Position numbers and translations under genes: made by a program | In this document: in pieces, positions 8,171 through 28,554 of the stretch | Numbering within the stretch: position 1 is the stretch's first letter | Layout: each line of letters begins with the position of its first letter | The notes under the pieces: model-generated | Databases searched by the model: none | What the model was told of the DNA's origin: nothing | Seen by the model: the letters and a program-made list of their open reading frames with translations, nothing else | NCBI GenBank assembly: GCA_958430865.1 | Contig: CAUDNR010000473.1 | Location: 923 to 29,476, forward strand | Reading direction: 5' to 3' | DNA: 28,554 nt | From: Entrophospora sp. SA101 | Taxonomy: Eukaryota; Glomeromycota; Glomeromycetes; Entrophosporales; Entrophosporaceae

Positions 8171-8520
8171 TTGTTTTATCTGAAGTTGACATCTTTGTAG
8201 AAAAAAATCAAATTTATCAATGCAATTCAAGATTGGATTGGAAAATCTTCATCAATCCATTCCAAGAAATAAAGATTGATGTAGATAATTTGTCTACTAT
8301 TTCACTATTTAAGAAACATGATAATTCTTATTACGTCAAACTAAAGTTTTCATTAAAATGGCAGAAAGTCGAAATGATCTATTATTGTGTAAGATAATTA
8401 ATTATAAAGGACACTCATTGTGTAATCTTTTTTTTTTGATTTTTACAGATCTTCTACTTTGCATTACAATTATGGTTGCTTGCCAAAACTCCTCTGGAAA
8501 TCAATCGGCAGAGTTTCAGC
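8167..8520 (+). pseudogene. Coding relic of unknown family, possibly two exons
   Basis: The 76-codon frame at 8167-8397 codes a charged, globular-looking peptide (for example YVKLKFSLKWQK) that does not continue the transposase reading. Near its end a GTAAGA donor and a T-rich ACAG acceptor at about 8449 could splice it to a second open piece ending near 8520. The two pieces do not share a clearly preferred phase. I do not recognise the product. It may be a fragment carried by the neighbouring element. Confidence 0.3.
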
Positions 8521-8633
8521 AGGTAACACACTAATTGATTGTTAGAGTTTCGGCAGAGTTTCGCATTTAGGGATTTCGACAATTAGTGGAGTTTAGGCAG
8601 GTTACAACTAATTGTTTATTAGAGTTTCAGCAG
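8511..8633. repeat. Diverged direct repeat, about 78-bp period
   Basis: Two related 45-bp copies, 8511-8556 and 8589-8633, each begin GAGTTT, contain GCAGGT and CTAATTG, and end TTAGAGTTTCRGCAG. A further GCAGAGTTTCG phrase lies between them. This looks like a small decayed tandem array. Confidence 0.6.
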
Positions 8634-8839
8634 TCATTAAGAGGTTTCGGAAAGCAACTTAATTACAATAAATACAGAAAAACATGATGTTGCATTAATT
8701 CAATAATACAAAAAAGTTTTATAAACATGGTTGTCCTTTCTTAAAAAAGTCAATCATTTTTGATTTCATTGATTAACAAGTAAAATTTGTTATGCTAAAT
8801 CGGAATCACCCTATTAGCTGACTGTGACGAAAAGAAAAC

Positions 8840-17200: not shown

Positions 17201-18667
17201 TTATAATAATTTCACAGAAAATATCCTATTGCCAATTTTACAAACCATTTTTTCAATTATAAAATTGTATCCTTGAATTTTTCTTTCATATCCCAAATTT
17301 TTTAGGTGATTACATAGTGAATTATTTATTGAGTTTCCAAGAGCCCATAAAATACTTGAATGAAATTTTGGATCCTAAATATACGTGTGTGCGTTATATT
17401 ATGATCGATTTGAAATATTTGAAATGTGATTTTATGATTGTTTACCTTGTAAAACTCTTCTTGTCTATAATCTTTTACCACACTATTAATATGTTCAAGT
17501 AATTCTTTCAACTAAAATAATAATCATTACAATGATAGTAACAATAACAACAATAATATTATTAATTAATTTTACAAATTTAACAGTTTATATTCACAAT
17601 CTTATAAAAATATAAATACTTTATCAAATCCTTTATCCACTTCCAACGCAAGAAATGATCTTGTATTTTCATTATTTGTCAAATTTTGTAATTTTGAAAA
17701 CGCAATCTCGAATCTTGGAAAGGGGAGATAAATTGTAAATAAGAAATTTATCAAATACTTAAAAAAATTATCCATCAACTAAAGATGTATTTACTTTTTT
17801 TTATTTTTAAAACCTTTTTTCAAATTATCCCAAAATCCATTTATTTGAAAATATTTTAAAAAAATAGGTTTTGTTAAACTAATATGTAACTTTATATCTT
17901 TAAATATTTGTCCAATTTCATCTTCGTCTTTGTCATCATCTTTCTCATCATCGTCAATTTTATTTTCATTATATCTTAATAGATTGCTTGTACTCAGTAC
18001 ATCTTTATCAAGTAATTTTAATAATTCACTCTCTTCTTCTTCAAGACATGAGAAAACCTTGATTTCTTTTTCATTATTATTTAGAAAACTTTCTGATTGA
18101 ATTTTAATATTTTTTAAAAGATCCTCAAAGTCTTCTGGTATAATCACTATAATAAATAGCAATAAAAGAATTAATAACATAATCTTTAAATTATCATCAT
18201 TGTTATATAACCAATTTGTTATTAACCTTCCATGTAAACGTGTGTAGCCCAATTTCCCTCAACATGTAGTTTTGTTCTTACACGACCTTGATGTTCGTCT
18301 GGATTATCAATGTGTACTTTATTATCTAGAAAAAGAGATCCGATTAAGAGAATTATTATAATTTATATATTTAAAATTTATTAATTTATTACCTGAATAT
18401 AATTGTAAAAATTCAGTAGGAAGGGGTGGTAATGATGAAATTTTCTTTTTTCTATGGAAATATGTATGTTGATTATAGATATATAATTTAAGAAATGCTT
18501 TTAAAAATTTAAAATTACTTTATTGTTTGATTAAGATTTTCATCAGAAAATTTCCTTTTTACAAGCGCATTTGATAAAGGATTTCCATTATCATTATCAT
18601 CATTGTTGTTGTTGCTATCTTCCAGAATTTCTTCAGATGATGAATCATATTCTAAAATATTATCCAT
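17201..18667 (-). CDS. USB1: U6 snRNA phosphodiesterase Usb1/Mpn1, seven exons
   Basis: 2H-phosphodiesterase superfamily exonuclease that trims the oligo(U) tail of U6 snRNA in the nucleus. Minus-strand exons: 18667-18519, 18451-18393, 18325-18227, 18146-17795, 17713-17620, 17511-17446, 17374-17201. All join in frame through 67-108-nt GT-AG introns, giving 330 residues, somewhat longer than the human and yeast proteins. The two catalytic HxS motifs are LHISLTKP (H190, S192) and PKFHSSILW (H278, S280). Other family marks are GNWATHVYME near the start and NTRSFLALEV between the motifs. The N-terminus is Asp/Asn-rich and disordered. An acidic Asp/Glu/Lys insert in exon 4 (about residues 160-180) accounts for the extra length. 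It converges on DUS3 with 79 bp between stop codons, so the 3' UTRs probably overlap. The start is the first ATG of an open frame. Confidence 0.93.
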
Positions 18668-20267: not shown

Positions 20268-21570
20268 ATGTCTCAGCTAACTTCTGTAATTAAAAGGGCA
20301 GGACCTTCTTTGCACTCTGCTACTGTTATATTTTTACATGTAAAAATTGTTTATCCTTAATATATTAAGTATGTAAATAATAAATGTTCAAGAATTAAAA
20401 AAAATTATATATATTGCTTTATGGTATAGGGTTTAGGTGATAGCGGACATGGATGGGAACCAATTGCTACAGAAATAGGTGAAATAATGAAACATGTAAA
20501 ATTTGTGCTACCAAATGCGTAAGCTTATAATAATGATATTAATATATAAAGAATAATTGCAAAGATTTAATTTATTTGAGATTTGCCTTGTTGATATAGA
20601 CCAATACGTCCAATAACTATTAATATGGGTATGAGAATGCCTGGATGGTAATAATTATGACATGTTTCTTATCCAGATAGAATTGAATATAACAAACAAT
20701 TAATCATTATAAATTATATCATAGGTTTGATCTTACAACTCTAAATCTAGATCAAATAGATGGTGGTGTGGATGAAGATGGTGTTATGGAAACTCTCTCT
20801 CAAAGTATAATATTAATATTTATGTTAATATTATCAATGTTATTGATATTGGAAAAAATATTTATTGTTTATTTATTTATTTTTCAGTAAAGAAATTGAT
20901 AAAAGATGAAATTGACTCTGGAATTGTTTCTAATCGAATTGTTGTTGGAGGGTTTTCTCAAGGAGCTGCAATAGCTCTTGCTACAGGGGTAACATCAGAA
21001 TATCCTTTGGCTGGCATAGTTGGGTAAAAGTATTCTCTTATACTCTATCTTCTTTTTTCGTCTTTTGATCAAAAATTTTTAAAATTGTAAAGTTTTATAA
21101 AAATAATAGATTAAGTGGGTTTTTAAGTATGGAAGAAAAGATTATTCAGGTTAATTGTTATTATTATTATTACTACTACTATTGTTATTATTACTACTAT
21201 TACTATTATTACTATTATTATATTATTGATTCTTTAAAATTTTTATATTTAATATATGTTTAAATAAATGAATATTTAGATGTCCACTCAAGCAAATAAG
21301 AACACACCAATATTTATGGCTCATGGTGATAGAGATATGGTATATGATTATTGTTAAATGATAAATCAATGCAATATAATCATTAATATATATTTTTATA
21401 TATTTTTTATTTTATAGGTTGTAAATTATAAATTTGGTAAACGGACTTCAGAATTTCTTAAAAATAATGGTTACAACGTAACATTTAAAACTTATAATGG
21501 AATGGGCCATTCTTCTTCAAATCAAGAAGTTTATGATCTAACTTCCTTTCTGAAACAAGTTATTCCTTAA
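20268..21570 (+). CDS. APT1: Acyl-protein thioesterase 1 (lysophospholipase-like), eight exons
   Basis: Cytosolic alpha/beta-hydrolase that removes palmitoyl groups from S-acylated proteins. Exons: 20268-20339, 20430-20518, 20600-20647, 20725-20804, 20888-21023, 21110-21149, 21280-21339, 21418-21570, all with GT-AG introns of 77-130 nt and no frame break, giving 225 residues, the usual family length. Motifs: FLHGLGDSGHGW at the oxyanion side, LPNAPIRPITIN with MRMPGWFD, the nucleophile elbow GGFSQGAA (Ser120), AHGDRDMVV (Asp174) and GMGHSSS (His206). Positions closely match the human triad numbering I remember (Ser119, Asp174, His208). Intron 6 contains an ATT/ACT trinucleotide microsatellite (about 21152-21232). 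Intact. Lysophospholipase activity is the older alternative name for the same family. Confidence 0.96.
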
Positions 21571-23212: not shown

Positions 23213-24000
23213 GGGAGTGCCCAAAATGATGTCATTTGGTTTGGGGTGAGCTTCCAACATTACACATAATATGATCCAATAAAATTTTCATAATAATTTC
23301 ATCATATTTGATTTTATCACAGGAAAATTTTTTTGTTACATGTAAATTTATAAAGGGTAATATTATATACAGAAAGGTTCTTTTTATGAAATATATAGTT
23401 CCTATGCGACAAATAAGAATTAATTCTTAGAGTTGGTAAGCACTCCGTAATTCCTGCCACCACAGCCCACAAATTTAATTATCACATCATCAATAAAATG
23501 TCGCATTGGTTTTACAAAATTTTTGAGCTACAATTTAGTTTCTTTTTTTGTAGAATTAATTGCCACTTTTGTAGGCTCCGTATATTCCACATCATATGCG
23601 GACAATTTCCAGGTAGGTCTGACCTTTATCCCTGTATTCGGAGGGATACAGCTTTAGCCTGGCAAGGGATAAATATAAATACACAGATATATCTCTCTGA
23701 TCACCTGGTCCATAGATCTTGAGTGAATTATCCAACCAATACTCGAAGATCAATAAGATTGACAAGGGGGATATCCCTCATATGGGGCATACTGCAACAA
23801 AACCAGACAAAGTGAACATTTTATTATGTGATATGAATGAGAGGCTGATTGTGATGTGGCTGTAAAATTGACCAGTGTGACTGATGACATTTTGAAAAGT
23901 AATAATGGTGCTTGTTCATAACTTATGGACTTGTTAATTTTAATGCTCACTTTATCATACCAAAATGTGATGAATATAAACCATAACATGATTAATATAG
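23213..24000. other. Non-coding accessory DNA with repeat fragments
   Basis: Starts with GGGAGTGCCCAAAATGATG next to a TA, which looks like the end of an inserted element, though I cannot find its other end. The frames at 23498-23722 and 23750-23989 look like shadows of repeats. The block at 23783-23822 is an inverted copy of the dispersed repeat at 13664-13702. Confidence 0.4.
23783..23822 (-). repeat. Dispersed repeat, copy 2
   Basis: The reverse complement of the repeat at 13664-13702, ending GTATGCCCCA instead of AGCATGCCCCA. It confirms that this sequence is interspersed and not part of a gene. Confidence 0.65.
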
Positions 24001-24028
24001 GATTACCTCTATATATAAAAATAATAAT

Positions 24029-24220
24029 ATGAAGTTAATTTACATCAGATCTACAATGGAACCCAAGAATTATAGTACTATCAGAAGTATTTTGAAGAAA
24101 GAGCAAGGTGAAAAAATTGCACCTTATATTTTCAAAATAAATGATACTCAAACACTTGAGGCTTATCTAAGAAAAGAAAGGATTACTTATGAAATTTACC
24201 ATGAAGAAAGAAAATCATAA
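24029..24220 (+). CDS. Small 63-residue protein, probably endobacterial origin
   Basis: ATG at 24029, TAA at 24218-24220; no TGA codon occurs, so the genetic code is not tested here. The product is charged and compact (YSTIRSILKKEQGEK, then PYIFKINDTQTLEAYLRKE). No family is recognised. Its last codons and the downstream 90 bp recur at 22668-22790, and in both places a minus-strand TGA-as-Trp block follows, so it probably arrived with that DNA. An inner ATG at 24056 is an alternative start. No ribosome-binding site is obvious. It may well be silent in the fungus. Confidence 0.45.
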   Translation: MKLIYIRSTMEPKNYSTIRSILKKEQGEKIAPYIFKINDTQTLEAYLRKERITYEIYHEERKS

Positions 24221-25191
24221 CTAATAAAAGAACATTGTCACAAAACCATGATGAATCTAGAAAGAAAAGAAAATTAGAAGAAAAATAATTTACCACCTAA
24301 TTCAGGTTAATTAATCCCTTAATTTTTTTTCTTTTTTCCTAACAGACAGGCAAAAACTCCTATCATCAATACTATTATTGTTCCTCCCAAAATGTAAGGT
24401 AAGTAATTGGTTGGGTTGGTTGATGGTAATTGTTCTTGCTTTTTCTCAGCAATTATTTGTTTAAGTTCAGAATGGGATAAAGAGGTTTTATTATTATTAT
24501 TATTATTATGATATTCAACTACTAGTTTATTTTTACTATCAAGAGTAACATTTTTTATATCATGTTGAATAAAAAACTGTTCTAATTGTTCTAAATCAGA
24601 AAGAGAAAAGGCCTTTTGCTCTTCTTCATTAAATTCATAAACATTTTTATCTTTATTATTATCCTTTGGTGTTGTTGATTCCTGAGGAGTAGGAAGAGGA
24701 GTTTCTTCTTCACTTGGAGAATCACTATCTTTTTCTAAGGGAGGAACTTCTTCTTTCTCTTTTTTTTGGTTAGATTTCCCTTCCTCATCTATATTAAACT
24801 TCTTTCTTATTTCATCCACAAACTCCTTTTCTTTTTGTTTTCTTATTTCTTCATTTTTTTGTTTTGCTAGTTCAACTAACTTTTCTTTTAACTCTTCAGA
24901 TACTCCTTTTAACTTTTTCTTTCCTAATTTGAGAATATCTTCAAGAGAGTAATTATTGAGATTAGCCAAGATTTCTTTTATTGGTTTATCTCAAACTCTG
25001 GAACTTCTTTTTTATCTATTTCCAACACTTGAAGATTTTTCAGTGATTGTCAATCAGGACATGCTCAACATAAAAATAGTTTTTCTAATTTATCCATCAC
25101 TTCAAGTTTTAAGACTTGTCTATCAGAGGAGGAATAAAATAAGTAATGATGATTGGAAGAATCAAGAAATTCTAAATTTTTTGAATTACTA

Positions 25192-25640
25192 TGGTTGGCT
25201 CGGTCTAAAGATCTCCTATAGCTGCGCCACGCGCTCAAATTTCAAAAATTGCAATTTTGTGATTCGTTCAAAAATGCAATAAAATTTTTTAAAAAAGGGT
25301 TACACGTGATTTTGGTTAAAAAACTATTTTCCTTACTGCCAAATTTAGATATGATGGTCGAGTATTAGGCTAAATTTAGGAATGATGAACAAAAACTAGT
25401 CTAAATTTAGCAGTGATCATAGCGCTCAAATTTCTCATGAGCATAGTAAAGTACATGTTTTAAAAAAGAATAGAACTCTACAATAAATAATTTTTTGGAG
25501 AAAATCTCTTCATTACATTAAAAGTAGAAACCTATTTTACCAACTAATGAGGCTATTTTTTTAAAAGGTAGGACAGAAAATGACTTCTATACTTTTAAAA
25601 CTTGCCCAAAATTTAGGAGGTCTTTAGACCAAGCCAACTA
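25192..25640. mobile_element. 449-bp non-autonomous TIR element inserted in the LRR gene
   Basis: Terminal inverted repeats of about 27 bp agree at 24 positions: TGGTTGGCTCGGTCTAAAG on the left and TAGTTGGCTTGGTCTAAAG on the opposite strand at the right, each continuing AYCTCCTA. TA flanks both ends (25190-25191, 25641-25642). Removing the element plus one TA rejoins the LRR frame exactly, which supports these borders. The interior has no open frame. Two GCGCTCAAATTTC phrases (25228 and 25423 areas) are an internal repeat. TA duplication points to a Tc1/mariner-like mobiliser, but the TIR sequence is not one I can name. Confidence 0.8.
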
Positions 25641-25698
25641 TAGCATTAATTTTATTAATTAAATTTTCTTTACAAGAAACAAACTCTAAGTTTTTTAA

Positions 25699-25752
25699 GT
25701 TGCTAATATCTAATTCTTTTAAACAGTTGCTAATATCTAATTCTTTTAAACT
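25699..25752. repeat. Perfect-type tandem 27-bp duplication inside the LRR gene
   Basis: Two adjacent 27-bp units (25699-25725 and 25726-25752) differ only in the last base. On the minus strand each codes LKELDISNC-like text, adding nine residues in frame. It is shorter than the other repeat units of the protein, so it looks like a recent slippage event. Confidence 0.85.
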
Positions 25753-26913
25753 GTTCTCAGCACAATCTAGTGTTACCAAATTTTCACAACCCTTAACATT
25801 TAGTTACAAAGTGATGTTTCTTGTTGATGACAAACAAACAATTCTTTCAAACTTTTTGAGTTGTGGCAGTCTAATTTTTCTAACTTGTTTTTATAACAAT
25901 ATAAATACTTTAAATTTTTTAACTCTTTAACTTCTAACTCTTCAATATCATTACAATAACAATATACACTTTCTATTTCTAAGCTATTACTTAAATCTAA
26001 AGCATCTAGATTATTCAAACCACAATTTAACTTTTTAAGCTAGTTAAGTCACTTAAATCAACTTCTTCTAGTTCATTAGATGTTATCATTAAAGTATGTA
26101 AATTACTTAGACCAATGAAATCTGTTTCTTGTATTTCATTATGGTTAGCATGCACTTCTTGCAATTCTTTATTGCTACTTACATTTAACCTTCATAATTG
26201 ATTATTCGAACAATCCAAACAATCCAATTTCTCACACTCATCCAAATCCAAATCAGTTAGTTCATTATCACTACAATCCAAACTCTTTAAATTAGTGAAT
26301 CCTTCTAAGTTTAATTCTCCTTGTAATCCTAAATTACTCAAGTCTAGTTTCTCCACTTCACTTCTTTTGTCAAGAGGATACTTAGTATCTAACCAAGTTT
26401 GAGCATCACCATCTACCCTACTTCTTTTTATGGTATCTTCTAATCCCAAAGCATCTAATCTTGTTTTTTCCTCGGCAGTTAAAGGATTATCGCTATAAGA
26501 GATAGTTCTTAGGTTCTTTGCTTTTAACTCTTCAACTGGAAAGTCTCATTTAGTTAATTGATTATTATGGGTATAGATTTCTTGAACAGAAGGACAGTTC
26601 TCTATCTTTAAATTAGTAAGTTTATTATGTGTTACTTGAACTAATTTTAAGTCAGGGCAATTGCAAATAATAATATCTTCTAATTCATTATTACCTAAGT
26701 TTAATTGAGTTAAATCAGGAAAGTTCTCTATTACTACTTTACCAGTATAGCCTTGTTGAATAAAACAAAGAGTTTTAATTTTTTCTTTAACACTGGCTAA
26801 ATTGTTAAAATCCTTTTCTTCTTGTTTTGCTTTTAGCCTTAATCAATTTGTTAATCAGGCTTGATTTTCATATTCTTGGTTTGTCATGAGAAATAGTTAA
26901 TAGTTACACATTT

Positions 26914-26919
26914 ATTATA
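26914..26919 (-). promoter_or_regulatory. Possible bacterial -10 box of the LRR gene
   Basis: TATAAT on the minus strand, 27 bp before the ATG at 26887. No convincing -35 hexamer or Shine-Dalgarno sequence accompanies it. In DNA this AT-rich such a match is weak evidence. Confidence 0.2.
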
Positions 26920-27091
26920 ATCAATTACATATATAAATATATTTTAATGCATTCATCTTGGTCTTGGAGAAGTAATATCTTTGAATTCATCTCTAACAAA
27001 TGGGCAAATATTCTGGTAAAGATATTCTTGTCTTTTGTATTGCGAGCATGCAATCTGAGTTTCCTAATTAATAGGTTATTTATAGCTCAAC

Positions 27092-27176
27092 ACACAGCCT
27101 ACTTGCTGACTTACAGTCAAGTTTCCTTTAATTATATATATATGACACACAGCCTACTTGCTGACTTACAGTCAAA
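27092..27176. repeat. 30-bp direct repeat, 55-bp period
   Basis: Two identical 30-bp copies at 27092-27121 and 27147-27176 begin CACACAGCCTACTTGCTGAC and end CTTACAGTCAA. They are separated by 25 bp of AT-rich DNA. Only two copies are present, so this is a local duplication and not an array. Confidence 0.85.
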
Positions 27177-27255
27177 GATTAATAATAAAAATAACTTTTA
27201 TCTTCCTGGATAAAAGGGTCCCTAGGTTCCATGTAAATGATTATATCCCAAAGGC

Positions 27256-27390
27256 GTAAAGACTAGTGCTGTAAATTATGATGATGGTAGTAATTGTATT
27301 TACGGCATATAAAAAGTGGTTGCAATTACCTTTGCGACCACTTTTGCAACCATACTTTTTCCTTTTTTGGATTACGGCACTAGTCTTTAC
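27256..27390. mobile_element. 135-bp palindromic MITE at the 5' edge of the primase relic
   Basis: End repeats GTAAAGACTAGTGCTGTAA (27256-27274) and the inverse of GTAAAGACTAGTGCCGTAA (27372-27390) differ at one base. A second nested palindrome, AAAAGTGGTTGCAA against TTGCGACCACTTTT, lies inside. No clear target duplication is visible. It supplies the start codon and first residues of the open frame that runs into the primase, so the native N-terminus appears displaced. Confidence 0.7.
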
Positions 27391-28554
27391 ATCCGATAAT
27401 AAAAATGATACCGCACTTTTAGAAGCATACCATCCTGAAGAGATTTATTTTCAATATATTATCCAGATAGGAGAAAAAGGCTTTACATTAGTTGAACATC
27501 CTTCTGAAGTTTATAAAATACTTGATTCCCATGAGTGTATTGACGGAAATCAACCTCTTTGCCCAATACTTGATATTGATGCCAGACAGAAACCTGATCC
27601 CACCAATTCTGAACTACCTTCCTTAGATAGTGAAAAAATTTCTTGTGAAGATTTAATGTCTAAAATATTGATTGCTTATATAGATGCATTAAGTCTTATA
27701 CCAGAATATATGCCTTTCTTGCAATCTTTTGCATTAGCAAGTTCATCAAATGCTAATAAATGCAGTTGGCACATTGTTTATTCTCATGCCTGATTTATTG
27801 ACTATAGAGAACTTAAAGGCTTTACGAAAAAAGTTATGGAATTAGTAGGAGAGCCATATTCTAAATTCATTGATGTTGGCCTTCCCAAATCACGTTTTAA
27901 TCTTTGATTACTTGGATCAGCAAAAGAGAATAGAGTTAAAAGACCAGCCATTTCATCAGTTAAGAATGGATTCAAAAATCTAGAAGACTATTTAGTTCAA
28001 CCAAAATCTGATTATTCTGTGATCTGGCCATGGACTTTTTCAGAAGAAAAACCAACAGAAGATGAATTCAAACCTATTGATGATTAAGATGCTATGGTTA
28101 AAGGAGCTAATCTAGTTATTGCGAAATTTGGATGGCTCGAAATTGGAAGAACTGAGAAAGGGTTTGTCAACTTTCATGCACAATCAGTTAAAGAATGCCC
28201 TATATGTGATATTAAACATGAAAAGAATCGGTTATATGGATTTCTTTGAAAAAATGGACATTTTGTACTTAAGTGTTACTGTCAAAAACAATACAAGCCA
28301 GATCACAAAGGGCTTAGTTTCGATAAGGTATCAGATAAATTTGAATCAAAAGTAAAGCCTAAGTGGGGATTAATTGAAAGATTACCAAATGCTGTAAAAG
28401 ATCCATGCCCACTTGTAGAATTATCTGGAAAAAATATCAATGCCAGGGAAATGGAAAATGCTCCAGAAGCTTATCCTGATTTCTTGAGTGAGGAACCCAC
28501 TACATCTCTTATCCGATCACCTGTAATGACAGGAAAAACAAAAGCTTTAAGAAT
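27391..28554 (+). pseudogene. Primase-helicase (PrimPol/origin-binding-helicase type) relic, truncated by window end
   Basis: One frame stays in phase from 27391 to the window edge but contains TGA at 27791, 27905 and 28247 and TAA at 28085. Order: GFTLVEHPSEVYKIL, then CPILDIDARQKPDP (the hDhD metal motif of archaeo-eukaryotic primases), ASSSNANKCSWHIVYS (the sxH-type motif), KFIDVGLPKSRFNL, a zinc-ribbon-like CPICDIKH with two more Cys at KCYC, and at the edge SLIRSPVMTGKTKAL, the P-loop of a superfamily-2 helicase. I recall an expanded Rhizophagus family annotated as replication-origin-binding protein with this layout. No frame shifts are present, only point stops. The helicase body lies outside the window. 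Confidence 0.75.

What the first reader, a model, noticed from the sequence alone, without database searches (positions are those of the whole stretch)
24319..26887. Endobacterial LRR gene in a fungal contig, still showing a TGA = Trp code
The minus-strand frame carries four in-phase TGA codons over the first 700 bases, each where Trp gives sensible protein, and two more downstream. Standard-code gene callers would see only short, unrelated frames. The LRR type with Lys/Glu coiled coil and C-terminal anchor suits the surface proteins of Mycoplasma-related endobacteria living in these fungi. Flanking spliced genes such as APT1 show that the contig is fungal. This appears to be bacterium-to-host transfer of a putative host-interaction protein.
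Basis: partly seen in the sequence, partly recalled or inferred. Interest (0 to 1): 0.88.

Follow-up and report, generated by a model that had tools for sequence, protein, structure and literature searches.

The report
Endobacterial gene fossil in fungal DNA
A root-symbiont fungus carries in its own DNA a broken copy of a predicted surface-protein gene that likely came from bacteria living inside its cells: the gene still reads by a different genetic code, and a repeat element of the fungus, probably a jumping gene, sits in the middle of it.

Summary
Window 26887-26030 (minus) is open for 286 codons only if TGA = Trp; 2,000 simulations never exceeded 213. It encodes leucine-rich repeats (LRR). 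Three of its four TGAs are TGA in all four aligned nuclear copies, the fourth in the three that cover it. The rest is a pseudogene: frame breaks near 26035, 25803 and 25000, and a 449-bp insert at 25192-25640 with inverted ends and a duplicated TA. That insert has 40 near-full copies on 35 contigs, none of the nine contigs I class as endobacterium-like, and is absent from the paralogue on C608. Dispersed repeats flank both sides and the 3' junction recurs on eleven other contigs. So the gene sits in fungal DNA; a chimeric join is unlikely. The donor is most likely a Mollicutes-related endobacterium: the assembly holds code-4, LRR-rich contigs, but the donor gene itself was not found. At least three donor alleles probably entered. 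One of six TGA sites (25067) is probably not an original Trp. Expression was not tested.

The parts
26030..26887 (-). First part of the gene: 286 codons by code 4, LRR, TGA at 26857, 26845, 26548, 26194
   Evidence: relatives
26888..26987 (-). Probably the gene's own upstream DNA: about 71% alike in the C755 copies, where it lies inverted beside the gene start
   Evidence: weak
25804..26039 (-). LRR continuation in a second frame
   Evidence: LRR_4 E = 7e-6, just under Pfam's cut-off
25643..25803 (-). LRR continuation in a third frame
   Evidence: LRR_4 E = 4e-6
25192..25640 (.). 449-bp MITE-like host element with inverted ends (24 of 27 bases), inserted in the gene; TA at 25190-25191 and 25641-25642
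   Evidence: empty site in C608 and C1461
24981..25189 (-). Gene continuation after the insert; TGA at 25067 (CGA/CAA in other copies) and 25052 (TGA in all four)
24319..24969 (-). C-terminal 216 codons: charged stalk and LPSTN motif, hydrophobic stretch, KKKK tail
23995..24299 (.). Dispersed host repeat that follows the gene; holds a 65-codon + strand frame (24023-24217)
27037..27257 (.). Dispersed host repeat upstream of the gene
27275..27793 (+). Flanking ORF of a family found in many arbuscular mycorrhizal fungi
   Evidence: 142 relatives among 170 candidates
20776..21570 (+). Flanking APT1-like (Abhydrolase_2) exons

Best explanation
A stretch of DNA with an LRR gene that reads by TGA = Trp, likely from a Mollicutes-related endobacterium, lies in the DNA of a fungus that is, or is very near, Entrophospora sp. 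SA101, where it is broken in frame and split by a multi-copy element of the fungus that is probably a transposon. Shown: the code-4 reading, the LRR and the anchor-like tail, the frame breaks, the 449-bp element at a TA, dispersed repeats on both sides, further copies in the same assembly, and an empty site in one of them. Inferred: that the donor is the endobacterium; that bacterial DNA set free in the cytoplasm reached nuclei and was joined in by end-joining repair; that at least three donor alleles entered, because the first parts of the C434, C608 and C1661 copies differ mostly at silent sites, as they would while still translated in the bacterium; that the gene's 3' end was then copied around the genome together with the neighbouring host repeat; and that the gene did not work in the host, where UGA should stop translation after ten codons. 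In the bacterium the protein would have been an LRR domain on a charged stalk, held in the membrane by its tail; a role towards the host is a guess.
For: 286-codon run by code 4 against a simulated maximum of 213. TGA kept as TGA in the nuclear copies at five of six sites, and Trp in relatives: both N-terminal sites in P0001 (the only relative that covers them), 26548 in 4 of 4 that cover it. The assembly has nine contigs, sampled in ten pieces, that are 66-98% open by code 4, with TGA:TGG 372:114 in 49 frames of 200 codons or more; the window ORF has 4:1. Host element inside the gene: 40 near-full copies on 35 contigs, none of those nine, with a TA duplication and an empty site in the paralogue. 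Dispersed repeats on both flanks; fungal genes on both sides. 3' junction shared with eleven other contigs. Silent-site bias between C434 and C608 in the first part: dS 0.28, dN 0.047, 46 of 77 differences at third positions.
Against: The donor gene is not in the assembly's code-4 contigs (LRR matches there are about 30-50% identical; the tail matches none of the nine), and no Mollicutes genome came up in the one genome scan. Of the TGA sites, 26194 is Trp in only 1 of 5 relatives and 25067 is not TGA in the other copies. No reads were available, so the join was not tested directly. Copy searches scored only the best candidates (40 of 668, 40 of 1,559), so 'none of the nine' is not exhaustive. 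Some of the eleven junction contigs may be assembly duplicates; I read the sequence of two.
Confidence: 0.88

Rival explanations
1. Assembly chimera: a piece of a living endobacterium was wrongly joined to a fungal contig.
For: The assembly does contain endobacterium-like contigs, and Glomeromycotina assemblies with such contigs are known (PMC10507103, passages). Contig C539 has both code-4 genes and a fungal repeat, with a run of N.
Against: A multi-copy element of the fungus sits inside the gene with a TA duplication and an empty site in a paralogue; dispersed repeats on both sides; 3' junction on eleven other contigs; frame decay; the window itself has no N.
Confidence: 0.04
2. A working, domesticated fungal gene: the stretches with TGA are spliced out as introns and an LRR protein is made.
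For: Public SA101 gene models cover this and a related copy (P0002-P0008); in P0002 the left-out stretches hold TGA 26548 and 26194, and GT and AG are available at their edges.
Against: P0002 starts after the first two TGAs and is a partial model; frame breaks and the 449-bp insert follow; C434 and C608 differ without constraint in the later parts (dS 0-0.06, dN 0.01-0.08). No RNA evidence was available.
Confidence: 0.04
3. A native fungal LRR gene that decayed, the TGAs being ordinary nonsense mutations.
For: Site 25067 looks like that (CGA/CAA in other copies). Fungus-to-endobacterium transfer of LRR domains has been reported (PMC10507103, passages), so the family may be fungal further back.
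Against: Three copies that differ at many other sites have TGA at the same positions, with Trp in relatives; nonsense decay would give TAA/TAG as well, of which the first 286 codons have none. The closest code-4 LRR genes in the assembly lie on bacterial-type contigs.
Confidence: 0.02
4. A piece of mitochondrial DNA, since fungal mitochondria also read TGA as Trp (recalled).
For: Nuclear copies of mitochondrial DNA are common (recalled).
Against: An LRR protein with an LPXTG-like tail is no known mitochondrial product (recalled); relatives belong to an LRR family found on bacterial-type contigs.
Confidence: 0.01

Closest known systems
Nuclear insertions of endosymbiont DNA, e.g. Wolbachia DNA in filarial nematodes (PMC2882956, title and start of abstract in a listing only)
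   Same: Decayed pieces of an intracellular bacterium's genes in host DNA.
   Different: Fungal host, donor with TGA = Trp, and a host element inserted in the gene. Whether the Wolbachia cases share the last point was not checked.
LRR proteins of Mollicutes-related endobacteria
   Same: Code-4 LRR genes on nine contigs of the same assembly; an unnamed relative, P0092, has LRR, charged stalk and a C-terminal hydrophobic stretch.
   Different: 30-50% identical only to those of this assembly; broken.
LPXTG-anchored LRR surface proteins (internalin-like)
   Same: LRR domain, charged stalk, LPSTN, hydrophobic stretch, KKKK tail; LPXTG_anchor model reached in the window (17.1 v 15.9 bits) and in P0075 (20.6); weak InlJ match in P0092.
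   Different: No hydrophobic stretch in the first part that could serve as signal, motif is not LPXTG, and no sortase match in the assembly.
MITEs with TA target sites (Tc1/mariner type, recalled)
   Same: 449 bp, inverted ends, TA duplication, at least 40 copies.
   Different: No transposase was sought, so the superfamily is not settled.

Membership tests
Nuclear insertion of endosymbiont DNA | Bacterial-type sequence flanked by host DNA on both sides | tested here: met
   on one assembly, without reads
Nuclear insertion of endosymbiont DNA | Changes that happened in the host (host element inside, decay) | tested here: met
Nuclear insertion of endosymbiont DNA | Donor gene found in the endosymbiont | tested here: inconclusive
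   Only distant LRR relatives on code-4 contigs; no tail match there; no Mollicutes genome found
Gene of a TGA = Trp bacterium | In-frame TGA where relatives have Trp | tested here: met
   Three of the four sites well, 26194 in 1 of 5 relatives; 25067 fails
LRR proteins of Mollicutes-related endobacteria | Phylogenetic place among named endobacterial proteins | not tested
   No named endobacterial genome in hand; no tree built
Sortase-anchored (LPXTG) protein | Sorting signal and a sortase in the genome | tested here: not met
   Signal model just reached, but sortase PF04203 in 0 of 1 genomes; control rang in 3 of 14
MITE with TA target site | Short, inverted ends, TA duplication, many copies | tested here: met
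MITE with TA target site | Related autonomous element with transposase | not tested
   not searched

The most novel reading that the evidence does not exclude
The fungus is turning an endobacterial LRR gene into its own: stretches that hold UGA codons are spliced out as GT-AG introns, so that some nuclear copies make an LRR protein in spite of the foreign genetic code. If LRR domains once went from fungus to endobacterium, as published, this would be a round trip.
Probability: 0.05. Interest if true: 0.92.

Novelty: new member of a known kind. Interest (0 to 1): 0.6.

Why it matters
[quoted passage not shown] This locus points the other way, with a genetic-code tag that marks the direction and a host element inside the gene that argues against contamination, the usual objection. 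If several donor alleles entered, nuclear fossils would record past endobacteria of a lineage. It also shows that public gene models of these fungi can contain mis-spliced bacterial pseudogenes.

Tried and rejected
Chimeric join: rejected as the main reading. One insertion, then simple duplication: set aside, because C434 and C608 differ at 10.8% (77 of 715) in the first part, mostly at silent sites, but at 3.1% (14 of 449) and 6.2% (40 of 644) later (Fisher p = 4e-6); separate donor alleles with later exchange between copies fit better, though exchange inside the bacterium is not excluded. Shared limit of homology at the ATG as the integration point: set aside, since C755 shares about 100 bases upstream, inverted. 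Tail as part of the host repeat: at first suspected; rejected, because environmental proteins (P0075-P0077, P0084, P0085, P0089) carry the same tail or stalk, and the high-copy part starts at about 24299, beyond the stop codon. RING fusion in E. candida (P0079): the RING half has only 29-43% matches in G000, none beside the gene pieces, so a gene-model artefact is likely. Other genomes: 17 loci, none of Mollicutes, from one short pattern; viral contigs, no relative. tRNA scan of ten pieces for a Trp tRNA that reads UGA: one tRNA-Lys only. Gene-model introns: GT and AG are available, no RNA to test them. No structure was predicted.

Full report
What is there. The window is G000:C434:923-29476, in an assembly of 101 Mb and 2,123 contigs. 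On the minus strand 26887-26030 is open for 286 codons if TGA is read as Trp, with TGA at 26857, 26845, 26548 and 26194 and one Trp written TGG. In 2,000 first-order Markov simulations of the 2.57-kb region the longest TAA/TAG-free run in six frames was 213 codons. Pfam finds LRR_4 (E = 5.1e-18), and again, weakly, in the two pieces that follow in other frames (E = 7e-6 and 4e-6). The C-terminal piece is K/E rich and ends in LPSTN, a hydrophobic stretch and KKKKN; it just reaches the cut-off of the LPXTG_anchor model (17.1 v 15.9 bits, E = 0.006). No sortase was found in the assembly, so the tail is more likely a plain membrane anchor (inference).

The gene is broken. Read from 26887 it meets stops after codon 286; the LRR goes on in two other frames, and the tail is in yet another piece. 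Between 25640 and 25192 lies a 449-bp insert that is no part of the gene: in the copy on C608, and in its near-duplicate on C1461, the sequences on either side of it are neighbours. The insert has inverted ends (24 of 27 bases) and TA on both sides. It has 40 near-full copies, the window's own included, on 35 contigs at 90-100% identity (only 40 of 668 candidates were scored). In the six copies that I aligned the ends are the same and TA lies on both sides. None of the 35 contigs is among the nine that I class as endobacterium-like. The simplest reading is a MITE-like element of the host that landed in the gene after the gene was in host DNA.

Surroundings. A dispersed repeat lies at 27037-27257, another at 23995-24299, with a 65-codon frame that was found at 150 places, the limit of candidates scored, 142 of them without a stop. 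Beyond them are an ORF at 27275-27793 with 142 relatives, the named ones among the 120 listed being arbuscular mycorrhizal fungi and Geosiphon, and APT1-like exons at 20776-21570; PEPCK and Dus domains lie further left. In one search ten other contigs (C1964, C282, C1413, C482, C742, C1584, C387, C828, C202, C349) match from inside the gene's 3' end well into the repeat, and an eleventh, C322, just crosses the junction. I read the sequence of C1964 and C282 only; some of the eleven may be assembly duplicates.

Origin. The search with the LRR part gave 74 proteins among 1,866 candidates, with the tail 18 among 569; the best are gene models of Entrophospora sp. SA101 and unnamed environmental proteins. 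P0002 (SA101, 229 residues) matches the window exactly in four blocks of 47, 103, 52 and 24 residues; two of the gaps hold TGA 26548 and 26194, and GT and AG are available at their edges, so the model treats them as introns. The window is thus from SA101 or a near-identical isolate; which assembly G000 is, I do not know. At the TGA sites relatives have Trp: both N-terminal sites in P0001, the only one that covers them; 26548 in 4 of 4 (P0001, P0009, P0011, P0012); 26194 in 1 of 5 (P0010). Across the nuclear copies C434, C608, C1461 and C1661, TGA stands at 26857, 26845, 26548 and 25052 in all four and at 26194 in the three that cover it; at 25067 the others have CGA, CGA and CAA. C608 and C1461 are near-duplicates (99.35% over 3.8 kb), so they count as one.

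The supposed donor. Ten pieces of nine contigs of the assembly are 66-98% covered by stop-free code-4 frames of 120 codons or more, against 0-47% in the fungal-type pieces and 39% in the window (L028, a 477-base end piece of the window's own contig, read 97% and is too short to judge). Their 49 frames of 200 codons or more use TGA 372 and TGG 114 times. Two cautions: L023 and L031 are near-duplicates, and L029 (C539) has a gap of N and a fungal repeat, so it may be mixed. These contigs are full of LRR genes, but about 30-50% identical to this one, and the tail matches 21 contigs, none of the nine. So the donor gene is not in hand. 'Mollicutes-related endobacterium' is an inference from the code, the family and the host; I could not place these contigs taxonomically (the rRNA search did not complete).

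History. C434 v C608: in 233 codons of the first part dS = 0.28 and dN = 0.047, and 46 of 77 differences fall on third positions; in the later pieces dS is 0-0.06 and dN 0.01-0.08. The first parts thus diverged while translated, which with TGA inside means in the bacterium; the later parts diverged without visible constraint, as in the host. C434 v C1661 has dS 1.08 and dN 0.37 overall. I take this as at least three donor alleles, with later exchange between nuclear copies; exchange already in the bacterium is not excluded. C755 holds three further, more distant copies, and C1077 a short piece.

How it works. Most likely bacterial DNA was set free in the cytoplasm, reached nuclei and was joined in by end joining (inferred). 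In the host UGA should end translation after ten codons, so the gene was probably dead on arrival and decayed. Domestication by splicing is possible but rests on gene models alone.

Literature. SA101 was sequenced from sorted single nuclei, scaffolded with a Nanopore assembly (PMC6987183, passages). Fungus-to-endobacterium transfer of LRR domains is reported, and endobacterial contigs in Glomeromycotina assemblies are noted (PMC10507103, passages; chimeric assemblies also in PMC11423566, passages). [quoted passage not shown] That survey names Mycoavidus as donor to Mortierellomycota, so endobacterium-to-fungus transfer as such is known. I saw no report of Mollicutes-related endobacterial DNA in a fungal nucleus in the listings or in the passages that I read; these cover one open-access library. 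The Diversispora epigaea genome paper and the two 2015 PNAS papers were not read (one is not held; the others were not asked for) and could contain one.

Noticed in passing
window 24023-24217 (+): A 65-codon frame in the 3' flanking repeat occurs at 150 scored places in G000 at 89-100% identity, 142 without a stop, none on the nine endobacterium-like contigs; no Pfam match above cut-off. Conservation of the frame in so many copies is unexplained.
   Followed up: partly
P0002-P0008, P0025, P0086-P0088 (Entrophospora sp. SA101): Public gene models contain pieces of these bacterial-type genes, some apparently fused to other exons; they look like mis-annotated pseudogenes.
   Followed up: partly
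P0079 (Entrophospora candida): A gene model joins the stalk part of this family to a RING finger; the RING half has only 29-43% matches in G000. Artefact or real fusion is open.
   Followed up: partly
P0083 (Funneliformis caledonium): A partial LRR-stalk protein is 80% identical over half of the tail query, in a model from another fungal genus; whether bacterial or nuclear there is unknown.
   Followed up: no
L029 (G000:C539:9500-19400): Code-4 genes and a tRNA-Lys beside a fungal repeat (matches to window 8502-8664) on one contig with a run of N: a scaffolding chimera or a larger insertion.
   Followed up: no
L018-L020 (G000:C755, three places): Three copies of a more distant LRR fragment on one contig, 99.8-100% alike over 6.6-6.8 kb, with an inverted copy of the gene start beside it.
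   Followed up: partly
L023-L026, L030-L034: The endobacterium-like contigs carry many large LRR genes, up to 1,322 codons in code-4 stop-to-stop frames, some beside GTPase-like frames.
   Followed up: no
window 27091-27171: A 30-base direct repeat (ACTGTAAGTCAGCAAGTAGGCTGTGTG core) occurs twice in the 5' flanking repeat (seen).
   Followed up: no
window 17794-18258 (-): ORF with an HVSL (USB1-like) match just under Pfam's cut-off, 25.6 v 26.8 bits.
   Followed up: no
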